Assembly: GCA_008933995.1 (NCBI GenBank)
Contig: WARS01004015.1
Coordinates: forward strand, 415,001 to 479,000
Origin: Datnioides undecimradiatus
Lineage: Eukaryota > Chordata > Actinopteri > Lobotiformes > Datnioididae
Direction: 5' to 3'
Length of the DNA stretch: 64,000 nucleotides
The position numbers were made by a program, and so were the translations under genes. Positions 41,249 through 59,516 of this stretch are shown here, piece by piece (the first letter of the stretch is position 1; every line of letters starts with the position of its first letter). Below the pieces are notes generated by a model. It searched no databases, was not told the DNA's origin, and saw only the letters and a program-made list of their open reading frames with translations.

Positions 41249-42239
41249 ATGGAAGCTCGTGAATCAGCTGCCGCCGGGCAGAAATGCTCCAATAAGGAAC
41301 CAGTGAAGGAGAAAACGCCTCTGCAAAGGAAGTGGGCGTCCGAGCCCTCTGCTACCACCAAACGAAGCACTTTTGCTGACCCAGAGGCAAAACACCGTGA
41401 GAGTTTGCCGTGTGGTGCCACCGGGGGATCAGCACCCCAGCAAAAGTATGCATTTACAGGAAATTCTGGAAAGCTGCTATCTGGACCCTCCACAGTTAGG
41501 GCCATAGGAGGTCCGCCATCTCAAGACCCCCAAGGGCCCTTTGCGCAGGGGTTCCCAAGGGGGTACTCCTACCAGCTAGGCCAGCCATACCCACAGCATC
41601 CCCAAACTGAACGCTTCCTCTCAGGAGCCAAACCTCAGCCAGGTTTAGAGCCTCATGCCTGGCCGTTTGCTGGCCAGTTGCCTTCGGATGACCTGTACCC
41701 CGTAGGACACCCAGGACATACCCACCCTCATGGGGCTGGAGCTGGGAGGTTTCCCCGCCAGAAATCTCCCAGTCTACCTAGTTCCTTTGGACAATATTCT
41801 CAGTCAGGCCCTGAGCCTGGAGATGAGGGCTACAGCAAAAAAGAGCAGAAGCCGAAAAAGCCTGGTAAGTACATCTGTCACTACTGTGGTCGAGCTTGCG
41901 CCAAGCCCAGTGTCCTGAAGAAGCACATCCGCTCACATACTGGAGAGAGGCCATATCCTTGCGTACCCTGTGGCTTTTCTTTCAAAACCAAGAGCAACCT
42001 TTACAAGCATCGTAAGTCCCATGCTCATGCCATTAAGGCTGGACTCGTACCATTTTCGGAGCTAGCTGCGGCCCGCAGCGGGGACATGGACCAGGCATCC
42101 CCAGTGGGCGAGGCTGAGGTCCATTCAGATGGAGAGCAAAGTACTGACACAGATGAAGAAGGTGTGGAGGGCTCCACCATGCTAACGGACAAAGACAGCC
42201 CCATCCAACAGATCTCCTTTGAAGCTGACAAGAATACAG
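41249..42239 (+). CDS. hivep2: hivep2 coding exon 1: N-terminus and ZAS-N zinc fingers (residues 1-330)
   Basis: Encodes the N-terminal region rich in P, G, Q and S, then a lysine-rich linker ([14 protein letters not shown]) and ZAS-N. Finger 1 uses C210, C213, H226, H230; finger 2 uses C238, C241, H254, H258; the linker between them is the classical TGERPYPC. Both fingers are intact and near identical to vertebrate HIVEP2. The acidic segment [13 protein letters not shown] follows at about residue 290. The exon ends at 42239 in phase 1 before GTAACT. The reading frame stays open for 32 more codons into the intron, but that stretch has no resemblance to the family. A perfect internal donor-like GTAAGT lies at 41865, just before finger 1. 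Confidence 0.93.
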
Positions 42240-45200
42240 GTAACTGTAAACTAAGGTTCCTGGTGCCTGGTTTCCTAAAAGAGAAATCACTGCCAGGTTT
42301 ATCTTTTATCGTTTATCTTCATAATCAAACCTAAAATATATAAAATGTGTATTTTTCATATATCCTTTCATTGTTTATTACTGTATAGGTGGTGTGGAAC
42401 CAGCATATGCAGACTCAGCTGAAGAGCTACCTATGGGGTCTATGAAAGTGCCTATCCTTATTGTCCCCAAGTCTGGGGGAGTCCCCTCCCCAGGGATGGA
42501 GTGCCCACCCTTTCAGGACATAAAGGGTTCACACCACATGTTGGCATCACAGGTTGGTGGAAGAGCACATTCTCTGGATGACTCCCCCACCATCAAACAA
42601 CGTTTGGCCCTGAGACTGAATGAGAAAAAAGGCCAGGACTCTGACTCTGCCATGTCCCAGTCCCTGAACCTCCTCAGTCCCCACAGCAAAGGAAGCACAG
42701 ACTCTGGCTACTTTTCACGCTCTGAGAGTGCAGAGCAGCAGATCAGCCCTCCAAATACCAATGTGAAGACGTACGAAGAGATTATGTTTGGTCGGACTTG
42801 GTACTACCGACCCAACTCCAGATCCAGACAGTCCATCACAGTGGGCATGGCAGGGGCAGACCCCAGCAGTCTGGCTAGCCTAAAGAAACCAGGTGCTGTG
42901 CTGGACATGGGGAAAATAGCTGAGGATCATATCTGTTATAGGGGGGATGTAGGAGTTTCTGGAGATCCCAAGCAGTATCCAACAGGACCCTGTCAGAGCA
43001 GTACAGGGCTTCTGGAGCCTCCATCAGACTCTGGGCCACTTATTAGGAGTAACTCCATGCCAACTTCATCCCCACCTAACCTTAGCGTCCCGCCTGGGAT
43101 TCGGGGTAGCCACTCCTTCGATGAGATGATGACGTCGGATGATGTGTTTTACCCACCTCGCAGACTCAGAAGACAGGCTGCATTTGAACATTCAGCCAAT
43201 GAAGCCCAAGTTGTAGAGGCTGAGGGCTATGGACACATGCCCAAGAATGTAGCCTCATCTCTGTGTATGAAGATTGGTGAAAGGAGCCCAGGAGTCCCAG
43301 AGCATATTGCCTACAGCCCATACGGTACTAAAGTTAGCATGTCAGAAATAGCCACAAGAAAAAGGAGGAAAGAGAAAAGTGTTGGGGATGAAGAGGACAG
43401 CCCTGGGCATTGTGACAGTAGCTGTAGTGGTTCAGTGGAAATGATAGGGGACTATGAGTTCAAACAAGGTAGTCTTGATGGGTCGAGAGCTACACCGACA
43501 GGGAAGGGCTCTCTTCACAGTGCTCACAGCCAGTCTGATAGCTTCGATACCTGTGCCAGCATGTGTTCAGAGGACATTGCACTGTTTGCTGACTCTGAGG
43601 GCAGAAAGGCAGCTGGAAATGTCATATCAGTCATCCAGCACACCAACTCCCTCAGCCGGCCAAATTCCTTTGAGAAGTCAGAGTCCTTTGAGCAGCCAGG
43701 ATATCAGCCTTCAGATAAAGCTCCATCTAGCCAGTACTCTGAACAGTCCGACACAGAGATCTTTGAAGACGCTCTGAGTCCTGAGTCTGTCCTGCTGAGA
43801 ACAGAGAGCATGGACCAGCAGGTGCAAAGTGACAGTGACTTGGCCTCCCTCTCATCTTCATCAGCGGCAGCCTCACCCGGGCAGCCTTATCACATCTCGC
43901 ACAAACTAGTCAGGCAACCCAACATCCAAGTTCCTGAGATCAGGGTGACGGAGGAGCCAGACAAGCCTGAGAAAGACACAGAGGCTCCAATGAGCAAGGA
44001 ACCGGAGAAGCAGCAGCAACATGTGGAGGAGTTCCAGCTGCCACAAAGGAGTGACACACTCTCCCAGATGCCCTCGGAAAAGCTACCACCCAAGAAGAAG
44101 AGGTTGCGCCTGGCAGATATGGAGCACTCGTCTGGGGAATCGAGCTTTGAGTCGACCTGCACCAGCCTTTCTCGCAGTCCTAGTCAGGAGAGCAACCTGT
44201 CTCACTCCTCGTCCTTCTCCATGTCCTTTGACAGAGATGAAGGCCTCAAGTCTGTCTCACCCACCAAACAGGTAACCCATTATAATACTTAATACATTAA
44301 AGCCAAGCCATGTTTTCATGTAGCACGTGTAAGAGACAAAATCTTGTTATTAAGTCCAAATAGAAGCGGAAAAATAACAGCTAATTTCTTTGAAATTCTG
44401 AACCAGGATGATTCATTGGCATCTTGTGGTGGACCAAAGCAGTCGGAGTTCCTGACGGTGCCTGGCAGTGGTCACTCCAGCCACCACCAGCAGAGGGAGA
44501 TGAGGAGGTCCTCGTCGGAGCAGGCACCGTGCACGCTGCCCATGGAGTTGCCTGAAATGCGAAGCAAGTCCTTTGACTATGGAAGTTTGTCGTCCTCCAG
44601 ACAGGGAGAGATATACTCCAGTGCTTCGGCAATGAAGGAGCGACGGCGAGGATATCTTGTCCGACAGGTAGGATAAAGAGCTCCCTGCTATTGCAATTCA
44701 GAATAAATTGTTCTTAGCTCCTGCTGTAGCATCTTTGCCCACATAGCCTTGCACAGTTCACAAGACAAACCAACTCTACTTTTCTGTTTTCATGTACAGG
44801 CTTCACTGAGTGTTTATCCAGAGGCAGTCACCCAGGAACCAGGGATTGCTGAGATGTCAATCAAACAGGAGAGTTTGGAACATGTGACATGGCCTGGTCC
44901 AACAGGATCCCCCCATAGCAGCAGCGATCTCGCCTGCAGAACCAAGAGAGTTGGTGGTAAGCCTTAATTAGCATTAAAATTGGGTTGTCAAATGATCTAT
45001 ACAGATTTCTGTACAGTTTTCCAACTGATAAATACACTTGACTATGGCCCAGGCAAGAACTTTCTGCAATATGTCAAAATGGGTCTACTCAACAAACAAG
45101 GCAGGGTTGGAAGTATGAATCCCCACTGATACATTTATAGTAAACAAAAATGTTCTTTTTCAAAATAAAATGCACTATAAGCAATGAATTCTTATATTTT

Positions 45201-48200
45201 ATGCTCAGGTGTAGGATCTCACCAACACCAACAGCACCACCAGCATCTCCTCCAGCAGAGTATCAGTGAGGACAGCCTGCAGGACGAACCTCTCTATAGC
45301 AGGTAAGAAAGTATAGGTTTTCTAATGCAAGCCCAAAATTATTTATAGCTCAAAGACATTATAAAATAATAATAATTATTATGAGAAAAAAAAGTGTTCA
45401 ACAACTTTTCCTTAATAGGTCCCAGCAGCATCGCCTGCAGACCCAGGGCTCATCATCTGAAGGAGAACATCCAGGTCACGAGGTCATGAACAAGGAAGTA
45501 ATCCAGCAGTACCAGAGTGGCGCCCCCTTCCTTTCCTTCCAGCAACCAGGTCTCTTCTGGAGTCAGGAGGGTGGTCAGTCACCCAGACAGCAGCTGACTC
45601 TCCAAGCCCAGCAGCAACTCCAAAAACTCCACATCAGATCACCAGGCAACGTGCCAGGACACGCACTCCACAAACAACAACCGCACCACTCCTTGCAGCA
45701 AATCCACGACCAGCAGTCACACGATGGAAAATCAGAAAATCCAAGCTCTCAGATGTACATCTCGCACTCATCTCGCACCTCTCCTCTGTCCCAGCAACAG
45801 CAGCAAAACTTTGTCTCTCACTCCTCCAAGCACTCCCTGCCCAGCACCTCAACCAACCCCACGCTTCTGCAGCAGATCCAACCAGTCTTTGCCACCCAGA
45901 ACCTGGGCTCACAGGCTACTATGCCTGGCATGCTGGTTCCTGTACGGATCCAAACACATGTGCCAACGTTTGGTAGTGTTATGTACACCAGTGTTAGTCA
46001 GCTGATAGCTAACCATGGCAGCGGGGCACAAGGAGTAGGTTCAGCCAGGCCTGGTGCTGCTGACACCAGCAACATGTCTCCTCCGGTTGGTGTTGTGAGT
46101 GTCAGCAAACCACTTGGAGGCATTGGAGGAGGCATCAGTGGTTCAGGTTTCAACCTATCACACTTCCTGGGCCAGACGGATGGTGCAGTGCCACGCTACC
46201 CACCATGGAAGGTTCCAGATTCACTGCCTGAGCAACGACTCAACACTGGGATCCCATTGTCACTTACATCAGGCACCATATCCACCACAGATGCCTCAGG
46301 ATCTGGGGTAGGTGGCGGCAAGCGCATGCTTTCCCCCGCCAGCTCTCTGGAGCTCTTCATTGAGACTAAGCAGCAGAAAAGAGTGAAGGAGGAGAGGATG
46401 TATGGACAGATCGTTAAGGAAATGAGTGCCGTAGAGCTGAGTGGAACCGAAAGTGGAAGCAAGCCCGAGAAAGGGCAGGGCAGAGGTCAGCGGGCACGTC
46501 TGAAGAGTGAGGGCTCTATGGATGATTCGGAAAGGATGGCATCTTCTCCTCCACTAAGCGACTTCCCCATTGCCACCAAGATTGCCATTCCTGTCCGTTC
46601 CTCTGCCCCCCACCTCCCCGATGTACCCCGAGTCGAAAGCTTCACCCCGCCCCTCCAGATTGTTACAGACCGCTCCCCGGTTTCAGGTGGCCGGGACTCC
46701 CCAGAGGAACTCGATGTGGACGATTCTGTCCCAGAGCCCAACTCCAGCCCCCAGTCTATGGTGTCCTCCAATGATGCAGATGACAGTGATAACACAAAGC
46801 AGCCTACAGCCAGTAAAATCCCTGTCAGTATGCTGGTTCAGCTAGCTGCCAACCAAAGTGCAGGATTACCGGGAGCAGTAGGCCAGACTCTGTTGCTCAC
46901 AGATGTGGCTGACGTCCAGCAGTTTTTCCAGTTCCCAAGCCTGCGCACCATGAGCAGAGTCAGCTGGTGTTTCCTGAACTACACCAAACCCAACAGCACC
47001 CAAGCTGCCTTGCGTAGCTCCGTTTACAGCTCATGGTGTGTAAGCTCCTACAACCCCAATCCTCTGAACCTCAGCACCAAGGCTGCGCTGGCGCTGCTGA
47101 GGTCCAAACAGAGGAGAAACACTGATTTGATGTACACGTCTGCAGCCATGTCGCCGCCCAGCTCTGGGAAACTGGTGTCATCTGTGGCCTGGAAGCTGAG
47201 GTTTGATCAGGTGTGTACTCTAATGATGAAAGGTTGAGCTGGCACACAAACGCTCCCCGAAAATAACATTTAAGTCTTAGTTGAGTCAATAATTAATAAT
47301 TTATTTTTCATCCATTCCCTTTTTCTTCTTTGGTCTCTGCAGCTGAAGCCAGAGCTGATGCCAATTGATGTGAGTCATTTTGGGCGCAAGATGAAGGGAG
47401 TGGTGTCGTGGGATCGTTCGAAGGAGGAGCAGGTAGAGAAGGAGGTCTCGGTCAAACAGCCCACCACCGAACCGACCCGCATCAAGATCTTTGAGGGCGG
47501 GTAAGTCCAGCAAATACACACCCACACTGTCCAATAACCGCGGTCCAACAAAGTGACAGATGTAACTTCAACATTTATCTTAATATCAGCCGCGGTGTTC
47601 GATGGCACTTCTGCCTTTGCATGAAAACGATAAACGATGGATTTGCCTATAAAAGCGTTTGAATGCAGTTCCTGCTGTTGCCCCTGCACCGTAGATCACA
47701 TCCCACAGATTACTGCGGAGTTTGTCTAATCCTCCCTCGGAGACCAGTGGGGTAAAAGAGCAGATAGCAGATTGAAAGTCAATTACTGAAAGTCAGTACG
47801 ACTCTATTTGTTTTCCTCTGACTGGGAATGGACTGAACAGCAATTCAAACTCCAGTGAGACTTAAAAGTCAATAATTAAAGGAAACAGTATGTAAAACTG
47901 ACCGTACATAGACGGGGACACACTCCTATCATGATCCCACATTGTGTTTGTCTTTCAGTCTTTGAGCAACACAGTAACAATGAATAGTGATGTCGTCAGC
48001 CTGCAGACCACTGGTGAGGTGGCTGCAAACAACTAGCGCCCAGAGCAGACAGCAGAGAGTAAAAAGGAGTTTCAAAGACTGCAAAATGACTTGCACTGTG
48101 TTTAGAATAAAGAAAATAACACATATTTATATTGAAACTGACATTTGTTGTTATGATTCCTGTTCCAGCCATGTGATGGCACCTTTTTCTGAGGGATCAC

Positions 48201-51200: not shown

Positions 51201-54200
51201 CGTTTATTTCATCCTCAGAGCGCTGACGGGCTTGTTTTCCCCCTGTAAAATGTCAAAATTCATCAACAAACACATTAAAATGAGCAATTTGTGGTATAAT
51301 TACTGTGCAAAATCACCAAATGACCGTCATTCATCATCAGGTATTAAGAGAAAACAGGTTGATGTGTAAATGAGGTCTGTACTCATTTAAAATGTAAACG
51401 AACTCATCAAACACACGTTTTACATTCATTCTGGTAAATTCATCGTCATGCTTGACAAAGCACAGCTCTGATTTAATGACTTTTTGTCAGTTGTTTGGTC
51501 GTTTTGTGCGTTTTTGTAGTGATGATCATAATTTAAAGTACTTGTCTGTCTCTGGTTGTTTAGAATAAAAGCTCTGACTTAATGTTTTCTTTAATTTACT
51601 GATGACTGACGTTAAAAAACATGATGACGTGCTGATTTATTCATGTCAATGGAAACAAACAAGCAAAGAGAAGACAGTCAGCCATCACCGCCGCGTCTTC
51701 ACAGTCCTTCGCTCTCTCCTCCAGGTACAAATCCAATGAGGACTACGTCTACGTCCGTGGTCGCGGTCGAGGGAAGTACATCTGCGAGGAGTGCGGCATC
51801 CGCTGCAAGAAGCCGAGCATGCTGAAGAAACACATCCGGACGCACACGGACGTCCGGCCGTACGTCTGCAAGTTCTGCAACTTCGCCTTCAAGACGAAAG
51901 GTAGGGCCCCGCTTCCCCCTTTCACCCCGTGCACCTTCTTCTATTCCATTCGATCTGACGAGCGGAGGCGTGCAAACGTTCAGTAAACACAAATAAACAC
52001 ACACTTTCAGATGTTAGCGGCTTTATTTAGCATCAAAACTCGGCTTCAGATCATAAACCGGAGAATTAAAGGCCAGGACGAGGATCTCGGCGGTTGAACG
52101 GATGAATAAAACATGTGGAGACGCCGTTTTCTGTCGCTGTGGTCAGACAGGAACCTCCTGCACATCAGAGGCTGCAGATGCTGACTCGCTGACATCTGAT
52201 CTTTAATAAAAAGCCATTAACCGCCTGATAGATTTTCATTTTAAACGTATAGTTCAGACCAGATTCGGTCAGTGTATGAATTATATATAATTTGTCGACT
52301 CTGATTGTGCGGTTTTACTCGTTCTTCAACTGCTTTTATTTCCATTTCAGCCTGTTTTTTGTGTTTGTGCAGCCAAACAAGCTCTGGTTTCCAGTAAGAC
52401 TCGTGGAAGGGTCATTAAATGGTGTGTGTGTGTGTGTGTGTCTGTGTGTGTGTCTGTGTTTTGCAGGAAACCTGACGAAGCACATGAAGTCTAAGGCTCA
52501 TATGAAAAAGTGTCTGGAGCTGGGAGTCTCCATGTCGTCTGTTGAGGACAACGAGGCAGATGAAGGAGGTAGGAAACACACACGCGCACACACACACACA
52601 CACACACGCACACACACACACTCCAGGAGCTGCAGTGACATCCCGCTGACCCGTTGAGTGCTGCCTGCAGCGTCTTTGGCCCGCAGCGGTTGCACAGACA
52701 CAATTAGCGTAATGGAAAGCAGAGCTCGTGCTGACGGGCAGGACTCGTGTCAAACAACCGCACAAATATTAAAAAAAACAAAACATCCTTTACTCTCGTT
52801 GGTCAGAATATTCCTAAAATACCCGCCCAAACTGATTCAGAGCCACAGTTTCATACAAATATCACACATACTCGCTGTTCGTCGCCTCAGATTGGCTGCA
52901 GACTTCCAGCCAAGATGTCCGACTCTCAGTTAACCAGCAGCTATGGAAATGATGTGTGTGTGTGTGTGTGTGTGTGGTTCGGTGTCTTGTTAAATCTTTC
53001 AATGACTCAGTAATGAAGCTGGACTGATTTCACACTTTTACCATCAGCGACCGCTTCCTCTTTACATCGTCTTTCCAGGAACAGACTGGACTCAAAAACA
53101 AGTTTGTTACTCGTCAGATTTGAAATCAGCAGAGTAAACGGGAGCGGTTTGTGGTCTAAACGTGATAATACGTTAACAGGACGCCACCATTCATCCTTCT
53201 GTTTAGTTTTAATATCAGCGGACGTTAACAGAAGCTGTAAATGAAGGATCTGCAGTTCCTCCAAACAGCAAAACGAGTTTTTTAGGTGCAAACAACAAAT
53301 AACTGGGTGGAGAAAAAACAAAAAAACACATCCGTCAATCGATTAAACTTTATTTGTATAGCACCGATCGTACAGGGGGACTGTGTGACTGACGAGCTGA
53401 AGATGAGGAGCAGTGTGGACTGAAATGAAAATAAAATTAGATTAAACAGACAAAACGGAGAGTTTTAATGAACTATAATGAGATAGATTTAAAAACAGTA
53501 ATGATGATAATAATAAAATAAACATAGTTAGATAAAGGGTGGATGGAAAACAAGATAAAGCTGATTTAAAATGACAAAAAAATACAATGAAAGTGATTTA
53601 ACAGCTGCCAGGAAACATGAAGATAAAGGGTAGAGTAAGAACTGGGTAAAAGAGATTATAAAGACAAAACAAAGGTTAAAAATAAAATGAAATGCAATAA
53701 AATGGAATTAAAAGGCTATAAACACAACAATAAAACATATTTAGATAAAGGCTAGAGTAAAAATAGATTAAAAACATAAAAAAACAAATAAAATCTGTTA
53801 AAATCTGTAGAAAAATGATAAAACTGATAGAATAAAATTAAATTTTACATTGCAAATACAACAAGATAAGTAAAATGAATTAAATATGCAAATACGTATT
53901 AAATATAAAACTTGTCTTCTTATAAAGTTACTCTTATCCTGATATTAATAAAAACATATTTCATGATTTTAACACAATAAAATATATAAATTATATAAAG
54001 AAATTAATATAAATGTATGTTAAGCTGAAACTTTGAAGGATCTACGATAACACAGATCTATAATAACATAGATGTGACACGCGGCCAGTGCTTGTTACCT
54101 GTACGCAGGTGTTTCAGGCTCTGTCTGACAAACTCGCTGCAGCCTGTGACCTAATCTGTTACCGTCACCCTGGACCAACATCCCGACGGGTAGCCGGTGT

Positions 54201-57200
54201 TATTTTCCACCGTGTCGACCACCAAATTACATTTTACTCCAACTCACTCTGCTTATGCGTGAGTGTGTGTGTGTGTGTGTGTGTTGGCTCGGTGTTTAAT
54301 TGGGACTCAAACCCACACACACACACACACACACATACATACATGGGGCTTTTGGGAAAGAGGGAGAGCTGCAGAAAGTCAGTCAGTGAGTCGACGAGAC
54401 ATAAACATTTGTGGTTTGCTGTGTATAAGAGACTAACTGGAAAAGTAGTCCAGTGTTAGTGGATCTGATTTCCGCTCGCAGCAGCCGGATAAATACGATT
54501 TATTAACTCTCAAACGGCTTCTGCTCCTCTGGAGGAGGTCCAGGAGAACCGAACGAAGTCAACCGAGAGAGAAAAAACAAAAAGCACGTAGGAGAAAAAC
54601 TTCAGCAGAGGTCGCGATTAGTCCGCAACTTCACCAACTCTGACTCTTCACGGCGAACCCGACTGTTCGGCCAATCGGCTGCGTCTCATAACGAGGTTGG
54701 AGCGGTGGTTGGTCACCTGCCAGCAGTAGCTCTGCAGCTACTGTGGGCTCGCCGACATTTGGCTGGAGGGCACGCTGCAGAAAAACGAAAGTGAACTTTG
54801 TTTTATTGTGTTTTATATTTTGTATTTTATTGGTTTGAGCTGGTGGGAATGTGGTTTCAGTCTGAACTCGCACTCACTTTCCATCGCTACGCCAGTCTTC
54901 TTCTTCTCCTGTTCCTCTCCTGTTCTTCTTCTCCTGTTCTTCTTCTTCTCCTGTTCTTCTTCTCCTGTTCTTCTTCTTCTCCTGTTCTTCTTCTCCTGTT
55001 CCTCTCCTGTTCTTCTTCTCCTGTTCCTCTCCTGTTCTTCTTCTTCTCCTGTTCTTCTTCTCCTGTTCCTCTCCTGTTCTTCTTCTCCTGTTCTTCTTCT
55101 CCTGTTCTTCTTCTCCTGTTCCTCTCCTGTTCTTCTTCTCCTGTTCTTCTTCTCCTGTTCCTCTCCTGTTCTTCTTCTCCTGTTCTTCTTCTCCTGTTCC
55201 TCTCCTGTTCTTCTTCTCCTGTTCTTCTTCTTCTCCTGTTCTTCTTCTCCTGTTCTTCTTCTTCTCCTGTTCTTCTTCTCCTGTTCCTCTCCTGTTCTTC
55301 TTCTCCTGTTCGTCTTCTTCTCCTGTTCTTCTTCTGTTCTTCTGTTTCCTGTTTCTTCCTCCTCCATTAACTCTTTTCCACATTTTCTTTTGTTGTTCTT
55401 CTGTCCAACTTGCTTCTTCTTCTTCTTCTTCATCTTCTTCATCTTCCTAACCCCACCCACTTCCTCTGCTCTTACTATTTCCTCTTCCTCCTTTCCCGCT
55501 TCCACTTCTTCCACATCCTGTTTCCTCCCATTTGTCCTTTGCTTCTTTTGCTCACCCTTTTTGTCCTCTTCTTCCTCTTTCATCCTTCACTTCCTCTTTT
55601 CCCCTCCCACTTCCTGTACTCCTGCACTTCCTGTACCTTCCTATGTTTCCTGTGTCTCATTGTCCCGCTTCATCTACTTTCACTTTCCCTTCTTTTAAAC
55701 CACATCTTCCTCATTGTCTCCTTCTACTCCCCCTTTCCTCTTCCTCTTCCTTCCACTTCCACTTCCTGTACTTTCTCTTTTCCTTTGATTCCTCTTCCTC
55801 AACTTTGTTTTCCCACTTCATCTACTTTCACTTTCCTTTCTCTTCTTTTACCTCTTCTTCATTGTCTCCCCATTGTCTCTTCTTCATTCATTCTCTCCTA
55901 CTTCCCCTACTTTTACTATTTCCTCTTCCTCCTCCCCCACTTCCACTTCTTTCACATCCTGTTTCCTCACATTTGTCTTTTGCATCTTCAGCTCACGTCT
56001 TTTTCTGTTTCACTCCTTTACTTCCCCTTTTTCCCTCCCACTTCCTGTACTCTCTCTTTTTCTCACCTTCCTACGTTTCTCTTCCTCAATTGTCTCATTT
56101 TACCGCTTCGTCTGCTTTCACCTTCTCTTTTCTTCTTCTACTTCTTCTTCATTGCCTCCTTAAGCACTTGTCTACCACTTCCTTTACTTTCACTATTTCC
56201 TCTTCTTCTTCATCCTCTTTCCTTTTTCCTCCTCTTACTCTGCTCCACTTCCTCTACTTTCAGTTTTTTCTCCTTTTCTTCTTTTTATTATCCCTCTTTC
56301 CTTCATTCCTCCAACCTTCTCACCTTTCTCATTTTCCACTTCATCTACTTTAAATTTTTCCTCCTCTTCTTCTTTTTCTGTCCTCTTCCTTTACTTCCTC
56401 TTCCCACTTTTCTTCTTTGCCACTTCATCTACTTTCACTTTTTCTCTGCTGCCATGTCTCTTGTTTCCTTTCCTCTCATACACCCTTTTTGTTTCCTTTT
56501 CATCCTCCTCTTCTGTTTCATCGTCACCTCCTCCATCTGCTTCCATCCGTCCATTTTCTGTAACCGCTTTATTCCTTTCGGGGTCGTGGAGATGCTGGTG
56601 CTGCAGTCACTGGGCGGGAGGCGGGGCACATCCAGGACAGGTCGCCAGTCTGTCGCTGGGCCACATCTACTTCCTGTACTTCTTCTTTTCCCTCTGTTTC
56701 CTCTTCCTGTCCTCTCTCTAACCGTTCTTTCCTTCTCCTCTTCTCATAGATGTCGGAGATGAAGGTCAGAGGTCTGAGAAGATTTCCAGAGGCGCCATGG
56801 CGGAGCACCAGTTCTCAGACGCCGACGACTCAGAGGGCGGAGAGGAAGACGGCGACGAGGTTGATGATGAAGATGATGAAGAGGACGACTACGATGGCGA
56901 CTCCACGCCTAAGACTCGCTCGCGCTCCACCAGCCCGCAGCCTTACGGCCTGCCCTCCATGTCGATCACAGCCGTGGCCTCCTCCCAGCCTGCTCCTCAC
57001 CTTTCCCACCATTCAGCGTCTGACCTCCTGGGGAACACCAACAAGCCTCCGCTGTTTGGCTACTTCACCACCGTGCCGAGCATCCAGATCACGCCACAGG
57101 CTCCGCCCAGCGACCCCGCCGGGAGGGAGCGCAGTCAGGCGGAGTACCAGCGCGGCCTGCAGAAGACGCTGGGAAGCCGGCTGTTAGTTCCACCCTCCTC

Positions 57201-59516
57201 CTCCATGGATGAGGACCTCCCAGTCCCCTCCCCGGACCTCTCCTCCCCTTCGTCCCGCCTGTCCTCACCTGGGCTGGACCACTCCGGCTGCCCGTCTCCC
57301 ATCTCCCCCTCATCCTCACCCTCAGCCCACCGATACCTCTCCCCACATCGCGACCTCTCGCCGCACGCTGGACACCTCTCGCCCCGGCGGGACATCTCTC
57401 CCCTGCGTCACATCTCCCCCAAAAGAGACCTGGGTGTGTCAGGGGGATACAGGCGAGACCTCTCCCCCAGGAGGGGACACCTCTCGCTGCTCTCCCCTCT
57501 GTCTCGACCCACGTCTCCTGCAGGGAGAGACTACAAGCGAGACCTTTCGCCACGAGGCCGCCACAGGGGGATGATCCGGCCTGTTTCTCCTCACCGAGGG
57601 CTCCACCAGCACCTCCACCACCAAAGGTGAGTCCTGATGGTTTGAAGATGTGAGCGTAGCTTCTGGGCCTTGAAGGTGAAGCCAGTGAAGAAGAGCCACC
57701 TCTATAATGCGTAGCAGGTGATTCATCACCTCAACAAACAGTTTCCCAATGAGTTCATGGTCTCAATCGCTAATATCAAGTCTTCTTCAACTCAGCGCGA
57801 TGCTCAAATCTCGGTTGCAATGTCAGGAAAATGGGCGATACATCAGGATTTGCTTTAGCTTCCTTGGGATTGTCCGTCATTTGGATTTGGAGGCATGTCT
57901 CCTCTCCAAATGTGGTCACTTCTGGTGCCTAAAAAAAACAAGATGGCGGCACCTGTGATGTCAGATTCTGGTCAAAACCAATGAGTGGCGTCCACTTTTA
58001 ACAGCTGACAGTGAAAATCCTGCAAAATCAGCAAAGTCCTGACTGAAACAAACTTGGTTAAAGGTTAAAATAGTTTAACAAAATGTCAAAGATCAGCGAT
58101 ACAGGACTCTGAGTCATATTTGAGCAATTTGAGCATGTGCTGTTAAGTCAGAGACTGACGGCGATGTTTGCTTGTCACCAACAGCCAGCAGAGTGGATCT
58201 CGGGGCCTGAGGCCGGCTCACCAGGCCGGGGTGTTGGGTCAGGCGGAGCTGGACCCTCTGGGACGCCGCAGAGGCAGCGCGGAGATGGAAACGGTGAGAG
58301 TCCACGAAACTGTCAAATCACACTTTGGCTGCACGGCACAGCTGAGTGTTTGCATCCTTGTGTCGCACAGTTTGGCTCAAGTGGGACAAAGAAAGGCGAC
58401 ATTTGGCAGCAGCAAATGTTTTTTTTAAATTTGTTTAATGCTCTTGTTTAAAATCAGTCACTTATCTTAGCGTCTCTGTGTCCGGCAGCAGAGATTTATG
58501 TGAACAAGTCGGGGTTAGCTGCGTCTGTTAGCAGGAACGGGCGTCTCCCTGCTGCAGCTTAAAACAAAATGCTAATAAATAGGTTTTTTTTAACCTTTTT
58601 TGAGAATATTGTTGACTTTAGAAGGAAAAAAAGTCACAGAAAACTGGTTAATAATAATAATTTAATATGGATTCGGCACCAATATGAATGCAAATGTACT
58701 TAGAAGGCTGCGTTCTTACACAAACAGCAAACAGAGTTCAAATATAGTGCTAAAAGCATTTTTTCTGCATCATACACCAGAAAATAAACTGTTTACATAT
58801 TAATGCATATCAAGAACATAGCTCTCATAAATGTAATACAGTAATTAGGGTTTTTTTTTAAGGTTTTGCCTTTTAAATCATCAGGATAAGTCAAAATTGA
58901 AGCGTTTCAGCTGTGATTTACTCGACTTTGCGTGGCTCAGTCTGCGGTCCGGTTCGGCGAACCTGAAGTTGGAAAGTTGCAGATGGAAGAAAAAGGAGAG
59001 AAATAAGAGAAAAAAGCCGGAGCAGAGGAGAAAAGCGTCTGGCAGACTGAGCACAAGTATTCAGAGCGGACGGGGGAATAAAGAGTCGGGCAGCCTGAGC
59101 GTTCTGGAGAGAGGGATGATTGAAGATAGGGCTGCTGGGTTTTGGTGGTAATGGGATCTTGGCCGGCGGTGGCGTGGTTAATAACGCGGCTGTTTTTCTT
59201 CTTAAGAGCCCTCCTTCAAACTCTGGCTTCTGCTGCTGGTCCCACTCAAACAAAGAGCGTGAAGCAGCGAAGAGCAGGGCGGCCTCGCCTTTGATAACCC
59301 GCCGCTCCTCCAATGACAGATTAATGTTTTAACCGCCGATCTTCGGCCGTGAGATGTTGGAACGAGACTCTCACCAGCACCTGCCGTCCAGCGCGACCGC
59401 TCGCTGTCTGTTTCTGCACTTTTCACCAAGACCGATTCATTTATTTTGTCATATAATGTTTGGGTTTCCATCACGGAGCCTCAAATGTGTGTTTATTGTA
59501 ACTGGAACCGTCCAAT

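What the first reader, a model, noticed from the sequence alone, without database searches (positions are those of the whole stretch)
52422..52621. Exon 9 (half of ZAS-C finger 2) is bracketed by (TG)n in its acceptor and (CA)n at its donor
The 102-nt exon is phase 1 at both ends, so skipping joins exon 8 to exon 10 in frame (G plus AT still makes a codon). Skipping removes both zinc-binding histidines of ZAS-C finger 2 and leaves finger 1. The UG tract sits where the pyrimidine tract should be, as at CFTR exon 9, where TDP-43 causes skipping. The CA tract is an hnRNP L-type target. UG and CA can also pair in RNA, looping out the exon, which could favour skipping or a circular RNA. A length-variable repeat pair could thus tune DNA binding of a transcription factor.
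Basis: partly seen in the sequence, partly recalled or inferred. Interest (0 to 1): 0.75.

Follow-up and report, generated by a model that had tools for sequence, protein, structure and literature searches.

The report
Repeat-bracketed exon in a fish gene
One small exon of a fish DNA-binding gene sits between two complementary simple repeats that could in principle make it skippable, but the arrangement looks like a chance by-product of a repeat-rich gene, and no RNA evidence was available.

Summary
Exon 9 (52467-52568, 102 nt, phase 1) of a teleost-like HIVEP2-type gene has a (TG)n tract in its acceptor (52422-52453) and a (CA)n tract behind its donor (52576-52621). Skipping keeps the frame and removes both histidines of ZAS-C finger 2. 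The acceptor has almost no pyrimidine run (longest 4, against 11 and 21 for exons 8 and 10). The tracts form about 30 base pairs in silico.

The regulatory-switch reading is weakly supported. The first 41 kb of the window is very rich in TG/CA tracts. Exon 9 of four paralogues lacks the tracts, and at least two of these are also in frame. The two haplotypes are identical here, though 14 of 86 long TG/CA tracts in the window carry or touch an indel. The same bracket surrounds two consecutive HECT exons elsewhere in this genome. Motif tests show no TG preference at acceptors and no CA preference at donors.

Most likely: a lineage-specific microsatellite coincidence around a normally included exon, with latent sensitivity to TDP-43 or loop-out. 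RNA-seq would decide; none was available.

The parts
51725..51900 (+). Exon 8 (176 nt): ZAS-C finger 1 and the two cysteines of finger 2
   Evidence: 176 nt is also the length given for the ZAS3 exon said to encode the ZAS-C finger pair (PMC1361774, passages)
52422..52453 (+). (TG)n tract with a C interruption, in the acceptor of exon 9
52467..52568 (+). Exon 9 (102 nt, phase 1-1): both histidines of ZAS-C finger 2
   Evidence: paralogous exons L046 (99 nt) and L048 (102 nt)
52576..52621 (+). (CA)n tract behind the donor of exon 9
52951..52978 (+). Second (TG)n tract inside intron 9, competing partner for the CA tract (one unit longer in the other haplotype)
54898..56749 (+). Pyrimidine-rich array and stretch that runs up to the acceptor of exon 10 (start approximate)
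56750..57626 (+). Exon 10 (877 nt to the apparent donor AAG|gtgagt)
   Evidence: script 88 drew it one base longer, which does not change the frame result

Best explanation
Two independent microsatellites in a repeat-rich gene happen to lie at the two ends of a conserved, normally included exon of a HIVEP2-type gene. The TG tract has replaced most of the pyrimidine tract, so the acceptor looks weaker than those of its neighbours (shown by sequence). The tracts can pair (computed). Exon 9 therefore probably has some latent sensitivity to TDP-43-like UG binders or to loop-out (inferred). The CA tract could as well help inclusion through hnRNP L (inferred). The most likely outcome in the fish is high inclusion with little regulated skipping (inferred).
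For: TG and CA tracts of >=20 nt run at 9.8 and 6.8 per 10 kb in window 1-41 kb, 1.7 and 1.7 in 41-64 kb, 0.11 and 0.22 in 91.5 kb of paralogue loci, and 0.39 and 0.00 in 50.9 kb of other C2H2 loci. Exon 9 of four paralogues lacks the tracts and has ordinary flanks. In-frame exon 9 length is shared by L046 (99 nt) and L048 (102 nt), so skippability is not special to this gene. The two haplotypes are identical across the feature. TG-exon-CA brackets recur around two consecutive HECT exons of 105 and 96 nt. Donor-like AGGTAAGT followed within 30 nt by (CA)10: 14 forward matches, by (TG)10: 17 (reverse rows, inflated by tract length: 51 and 124). Acceptor-like CTTTCAGG preceded within 25 nt by (TG)8: 29 reverse matches, by (CA)8: 28 (forward rows, inflated by tract length: 126 and 148). 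That the first-named scan gives one row per motif is my reading of the listings. In some searches the read-backwards controls are lower for both tracts (7 and 4), so the motif is common near both, without preference.
Against: The acceptor really is poor in pyrimidines and exon 10 has a very strong one, which would favour skipping. The exon-looping hairpin is the dominant predicted pairing in the four spans folded, and it buries the acceptor AG. A given exon has only about a 0.03-0.1% chance of such flanks in this window. In the 120-150 nt class TG-CA exceeds CA-TG 1.4-fold (12,490 against 8,947), against 1.04 at 60-90 and 0.91 at 300-330, as a surplus of bracketed exons would give; I cannot exclude that reading. 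The motif tests are diluted by motif copies that are not splice sites.
Confidence: 0.7

Rival explanations
1. CFTR-exon-9-like regulation: TDP-43 (or CELF-type proteins) on the UG tract blocks the acceptor, so that a fraction of mRNAs lack exon 9 and encode a protein with an incomplete ZAS-C finger pair.
For: UG tract directly upstream of the acceptor with a short U run; in CFTR a (TG)12T5 site binds TDP-43 and is tied to exon 9 skipping (PMC12171016, passages); raised nuclear TDP-43 skips constitutive exons near short UG motifs (PMC11163724, passages).
Against: The hnRNP A1 silencer motif GGGGAAU reported for CFTR exon 9 is not in this exon (exact motif, read by eye). The four paralogous exon 9s found lack the tract. 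No RNA evidence.
Confidence: 0.15
2. Loop-out by UG-CA pairing: the hairpin brings the exon ends together and hides the acceptor, giving skipping or an exon 9 circular RNA.
For: Duplex -66.8 kcal/mol and about 30 expected base pairs in four spans; acceptor AG paired with probability near 1; the intron-9 UG tract at 52953 gets 0.0 and 0.1 pairs in the two spans that include it. A review says that self-complementary regions put across exons suppress inclusion in yeast (PMC9198270, passage).
Against: Long TG and CA tracts fold so wherever they occur, and proteins that bind UG and CA would compete (inference). Similar pairing is predicted around HECT-domain exons. 102 nt is small for a single-exon circle (recalled).
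Confidence: 0.08
3. Part of the fish intron class in which (AC)n near the 5' splice site pairs with (GT)n near the 3' splice site of the same intron and replaces U2AF2.
For: The polarity is right: GT upstream of an acceptor, AC downstream of a donor (class as described in PMC6093180 and PMC9198270, passages). An intron of that geometry lies between two HECT exons in this genome.
Against: Here the two tracts belong to different introns. Intron 8 has no AC tract near its donor (an AC-rich stretch about 85 nt in gives -24.3 kcal/mol) and intron 9 ends in pyrimidines, not GT. No genome-wide preference in the motif tests.
Confidence: 0.05

Closest known systems
CFTR exon 9 (TG)m(T)n acceptor and TDP-43
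   Same: UG tract in place of most of the pyrimidine tract
   Different: No GGGGAAU exonic silencer; no evidence of skipping; added CA tract at the donor; no length difference between the two haplotypes seen
AC/GT-bridged introns of zebrafish (Lin et al. 2016, Genome Research; not held; known through passages of citing papers and recall)
   Same: GT upstream of an acceptor and AC downstream of a donor
   Different: Tracts lie in two different introns and flank an exon, so pairing would work against inclusion rather than bridge an intron
ZAS3/HIVEP3 exon 13 skipping (PMC1361774, passages)
   Same: Alternative splicing that removes ZAS-C from a HIVEP-family protein
   Different: There the 176-nt exon (equal in length to exon 8 here) is skipped, with premature termination; here it would be the next exon, in frame

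Membership tests
HIVEP/ZAS-C zinc finger pair | Two C2H2 fingers like MBP-1 (1bbo) | tested here: met
   phmmer 1bbo_A E=4.3e-31 over residues 17-73, fourth in the list behind three long zinc-finger arrays; Pfam zf-C2H2, 2 stretches
AC/GT-bridged intron | AC tract downstream of the donor and GT tract upstream of the acceptor of the SAME intron | tested here: not met
   Intron 8 has only the GT side, intron 9 only the AC side
AC/GT-bridged intron | Splicing independent of U2AF2 | not testable with these tools
   needs RNA experiment
CFTR-exon-9-type TDP-43-repressed exon | Long UG tract next to the acceptor with a short U run | tested here: met
   52422-52453 plus CTGTGTTTTGCAG; longest pyrimidine run 4
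CFTR-exon-9-type TDP-43-repressed exon | Exonic hnRNP A1 silencer GGGGAAU | tested here: not met
   not in the 102-nt exon printed (exact motif only, by reading)
CFTR-exon-9-type TDP-43-repressed exon | TDP-43-dependent skipping | not testable with these tools
   needs RNA-seq or minigene
Circular RNA made by flanking complementarity | Complementary flanks | tested here: met
Circular RNA made by flanking complementarity | Back-splice junction reads | not testable with these tools
   no RNA data

The most novel reading that the evidence does not exclude
In this fish lineage a gained UG/CA repeat pair forms a repeat-made splice switch that loops out the exon and makes a HIVEP2 isoform with an incomplete ZAS-C finger pair, set by the balance of TDP-43, hnRNP L and hairpin, and open to tuning by repeat length.
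Probability: 0.07. Interest if true: 0.6.

Novelty: new member of a known kind. Interest (0 to 1): 0.25.

Why it matters
If the exon is skipped, a transcription factor would gain a repeat-tuned loss of one DNA-binding domain, a clean natural test of how microsatellite gain rewires splicing after gene duplication: the sister paralogue in the same genome is the control. If it is not skipped, it shows that an exon can stay constitutive although a predicted 30-bp hairpin buries its acceptor, which is useful for judging structure-based splicing predictions.

Tried and rejected
Exon sampling by kinase-domain hits, to measure how often TG or CA tracts flank exons: the search was answered without sequence and abandoned.

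Genome-wide TG-gap-CA counts as proof of exon bracketing were not accepted. TG-CA against CA-TG rows: gap 60-90 3,580 and 3,437, 120-150 12,490 and 8,947, 300-330 4,623 and 5,067. The 120-150 class stands out 2.7-3.5 times in TG-CA order but also 1.8-2.6 times in CA-TG order. Rows count tract registers, not places. On contig C2 the listed places differ less: 16 in the first 2.77 Mb for 120-150 TG-CA, 14 in 3.51 Mb for 300-330 TG-CA, 18 in 4.15 Mb for 60-90 CA-TG (my counts from capped listings). Arrays elsewhere may explain part; I could not look. An earlier count said that the C2 density is the same and gives 2.5-3.5; the figures here replace it.

Compensatory interruptions between the tracts (C in TG, G in CA) were considered as evidence of selected pairing. 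The two C interruptions are unpaired, opposite unpaired bases, in the computed duplex, so there is no covariation. Papers: seven full-text searches showed, in the listed titles and starts of abstracts (10 to 20 rows each), no paper on exon 9 skipping of HIVEP2 or on a TG-exon-CA bracket; the library holds open-licence papers only. circHIVEP2 appears in a table passage of PMC11919710, with no exon given in that passage.

Full report
WHAT IS THERE. The window holds a HIVEP-type gene on the + strand in a 581-Mb genome, most likely a teleost HIVEP2 paralogue (by recall of family sequences; no call named the paralogue or the species). Teleosts are reported to have five Hivep paralogues (PMC3852383, passages). 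Exon 8 is 51725-51900 (176 nt), exon 9 is 52467-52568 (102 nt) and exon 10 starts at 56750. The ZAS-C peptide matches the solved MBP-1 finger pair 1bbo at E=4.3e-31. Joining exon 8 to exon 10 keeps the frame and leaves one zf-C2H2 stretch in Pfam instead of two.

THE REPEATS. A TG tract (52422-52453) ends just before CTGTGTTTTGCAG, and a CA tract (52576-52621) begins after 7 nt of intron 9. In the 38 nt before the acceptor dinucleotide the longest pyrimidine run is 4, against 11 for exon 8 and 21 for exon 10; pyrimidine content at -20..-3 is 67%, against 94% and 94%. Exon 10 is preceded by about 1.8 kb of pyrimidine-rich sequence. So exon 9 has the weakest-looking acceptor of the three and faces a strong competitor.

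PAIRING. ViennaRNA gives -66.8 kcal/mol for the UG x CA duplex. It gives -56.2 and -52.5 for the CA tract with the UG tracts at 52953 and 54263 of intron 9, and -24.3 for an AC-rich stretch of intron 8 with the UG tract (-38.2 if the first 200 nt of the intron are offered). In four spans folded, 30.1-30.6 base pairs are expected between the two exon-flanking tracts. The 52953 tract, present in two of the spans, gets 0.0 and 0.1; the intron 8 stretch, present in two, gets 0.0; the 54263 tract was in no span. The acceptor AG is paired with probability near 1. This is what long TG and CA tracts do in general, and protein binding is ignored.

IS IT MORE THAN CHANCE? For one exon, yes: about 0.03-0.1% in this window. 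But the window is rich in such tracts (44 TG and 32 CA of at least 20 nt), above all its first 41 kb, and three other TG-CA pairs with a 60-200 nt gap lie in it, all upstream of 41 kb and away from exons 8-10. Genome-wide, the bracket pattern with a 120-150 nt gap gives 12,490 rows. I looked at the first 16 distinct places of the listing, all on contig C2. Two of the 16 hold two consecutive exons of one HECT gene (Pfam HECT E=1.8e-25), with TG before each acceptor and CA after each donor. For the other 14 a mechanical AG-open frame-GT scan gave candidates in 8 and none in 6; I tested none by protein search. In the listing two further matches look, by eye and recall, like coding exons right behind a TG tract; they were not examined. 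Fold predictions for the HECT locus show competing pairings: 29.0 expected pairs looping out the first exon, 7.7 bridging the intron, 8.1 looping out the second exon, 31.1 looping out both.

CONSERVATION AND VARIATION. A protein search of the whole genome found paralogous ZAS-C exons. In the four paralogues where exon 9 was found (L046, L048, L050, L052) about 120 nt on either side show no TG or CA tract; a fifth ZAS-N locus (L054/L055, 20 kb) gave no exon 9 hit above the background. Exon 9 is 99 nt in L046, 102 nt in L048 and perhaps 75 nt in L052, all in frame with those donors; L050 is unclear (101 nt with the best-looking donor). Skippability in frame is thus mostly a family trait. Contig C207 matches the window at 99.59% over 64 kb with 80 substitutions and 34 gaps and is probably the other haplotype. 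Of 86 TG/CA tracts of at least 16 nt, 14 carry or touch an indel between the two; the two tracts at exon 9 carry none, while the intron-9 TG at 52953 and CA at 54314 differ by 1 and 7 units.

GENOME-WIDE SPLICE-SITE BIAS. If GT-at-acceptor and AC-at-donor were a large class here, orientation should matter. Donor-like AGGTAAGT followed within 30 nt: (CA)10 14, (TG)10 17 (forward scans, one row per motif as I read the listings). Acceptor-like CTTTCAGG preceded within 25 nt: (TG)8 29, (CA)8 28 (reverse scans, likewise). The other strand's rows, inflated by tract length, are 51 and 124, and 126 and 148. No preference is seen, with the caveat that many motif copies are not splice sites. Against this stands the 1.4-fold excess of TG-CA over CA-TG at 120-150 nt, absent at 60-90 and 300-330, which bracketed exons could produce but which I could not separate from arrays. 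PMC6093180 states that about 10% of zebrafish introns have the paired arrangement (passage); the original paper is not held.

MECHANISM. CFTR exon 9 shows that a (UG)n acceptor can be repressed by TDP-43 with hnRNP A1 (PMC12171016, passages), and raised TDP-43 skips constitutive exons near UG motifs in a largely species-specific way (PMC11163724, passages). A preprint links an AC repeat to skipping of a human exon (PMC13174678, passages), while the title of a paper in its reference list reports that hnRNP L on CA repeats stimulates splicing. So the CA tract could push either way. In ZAS3, skipping of the 176-nt exon with ZAS-C fingers is documented in rat and, by its citations, in human and mouse (PMC1361774, passages), so the family does make isoforms without ZAS-C. 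I judge that exon 9 is mainly included, with a latent weakness; this is inference.

VERDICT. Observation confirmed; the switch is possible but unproven and not favoured; ordinary in origin.

Noticed in passing
window 42239-45418: The giant coding exon, a single long open frame in paralogues L046 (1345 aa) and L048 (1974 aa), is broken here by about five apparent short GT-AG introns (near 42239-42388, 44272-44406, 44668-44800, 44957-45209, 45303-45418; boundaries by eye), which looks like intron gain in this paralogue.
   Followed up: partly
window 1-41000: Very high density of TG and CA tracts (9.8 and 6.8 per 10 kb, >=20 nt), far above the paralogue loci (0.11 and 0.22).
   Followed up: partly
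window 54898-56749: About 1.8 kb of pyrimidine-rich sequence in intron 9, with a TTCTTCTCCTG-type array at its start, leading straight into the exon 10 acceptor.
   Followed up: no
L050:8831-8989 and L052:7382-7543: In two HIVEP3-like paralogues (label by recall) the ZAS-C finger 1 exon looks decayed: the match has stops and gaps in L050, and gaps with lost zinc ligands in L052.
   Followed up: no
L056:552-1034: Two consecutive HECT-domain exons each between a TG and a CA tract, with a 153-nt intron between them that has CA near its start and TG near its end.
   Followed up: partly
own genome G000: (TG)8-gap-(CA)8 rows are 2.7-3.5 times more numerous at 120-150 nt than at 60-90 or 300-330 nt; the opposite order also peaks there (1.8-2.6 times). 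Unexplained; perhaps arrays, perhaps partly exons.
   Followed up: no
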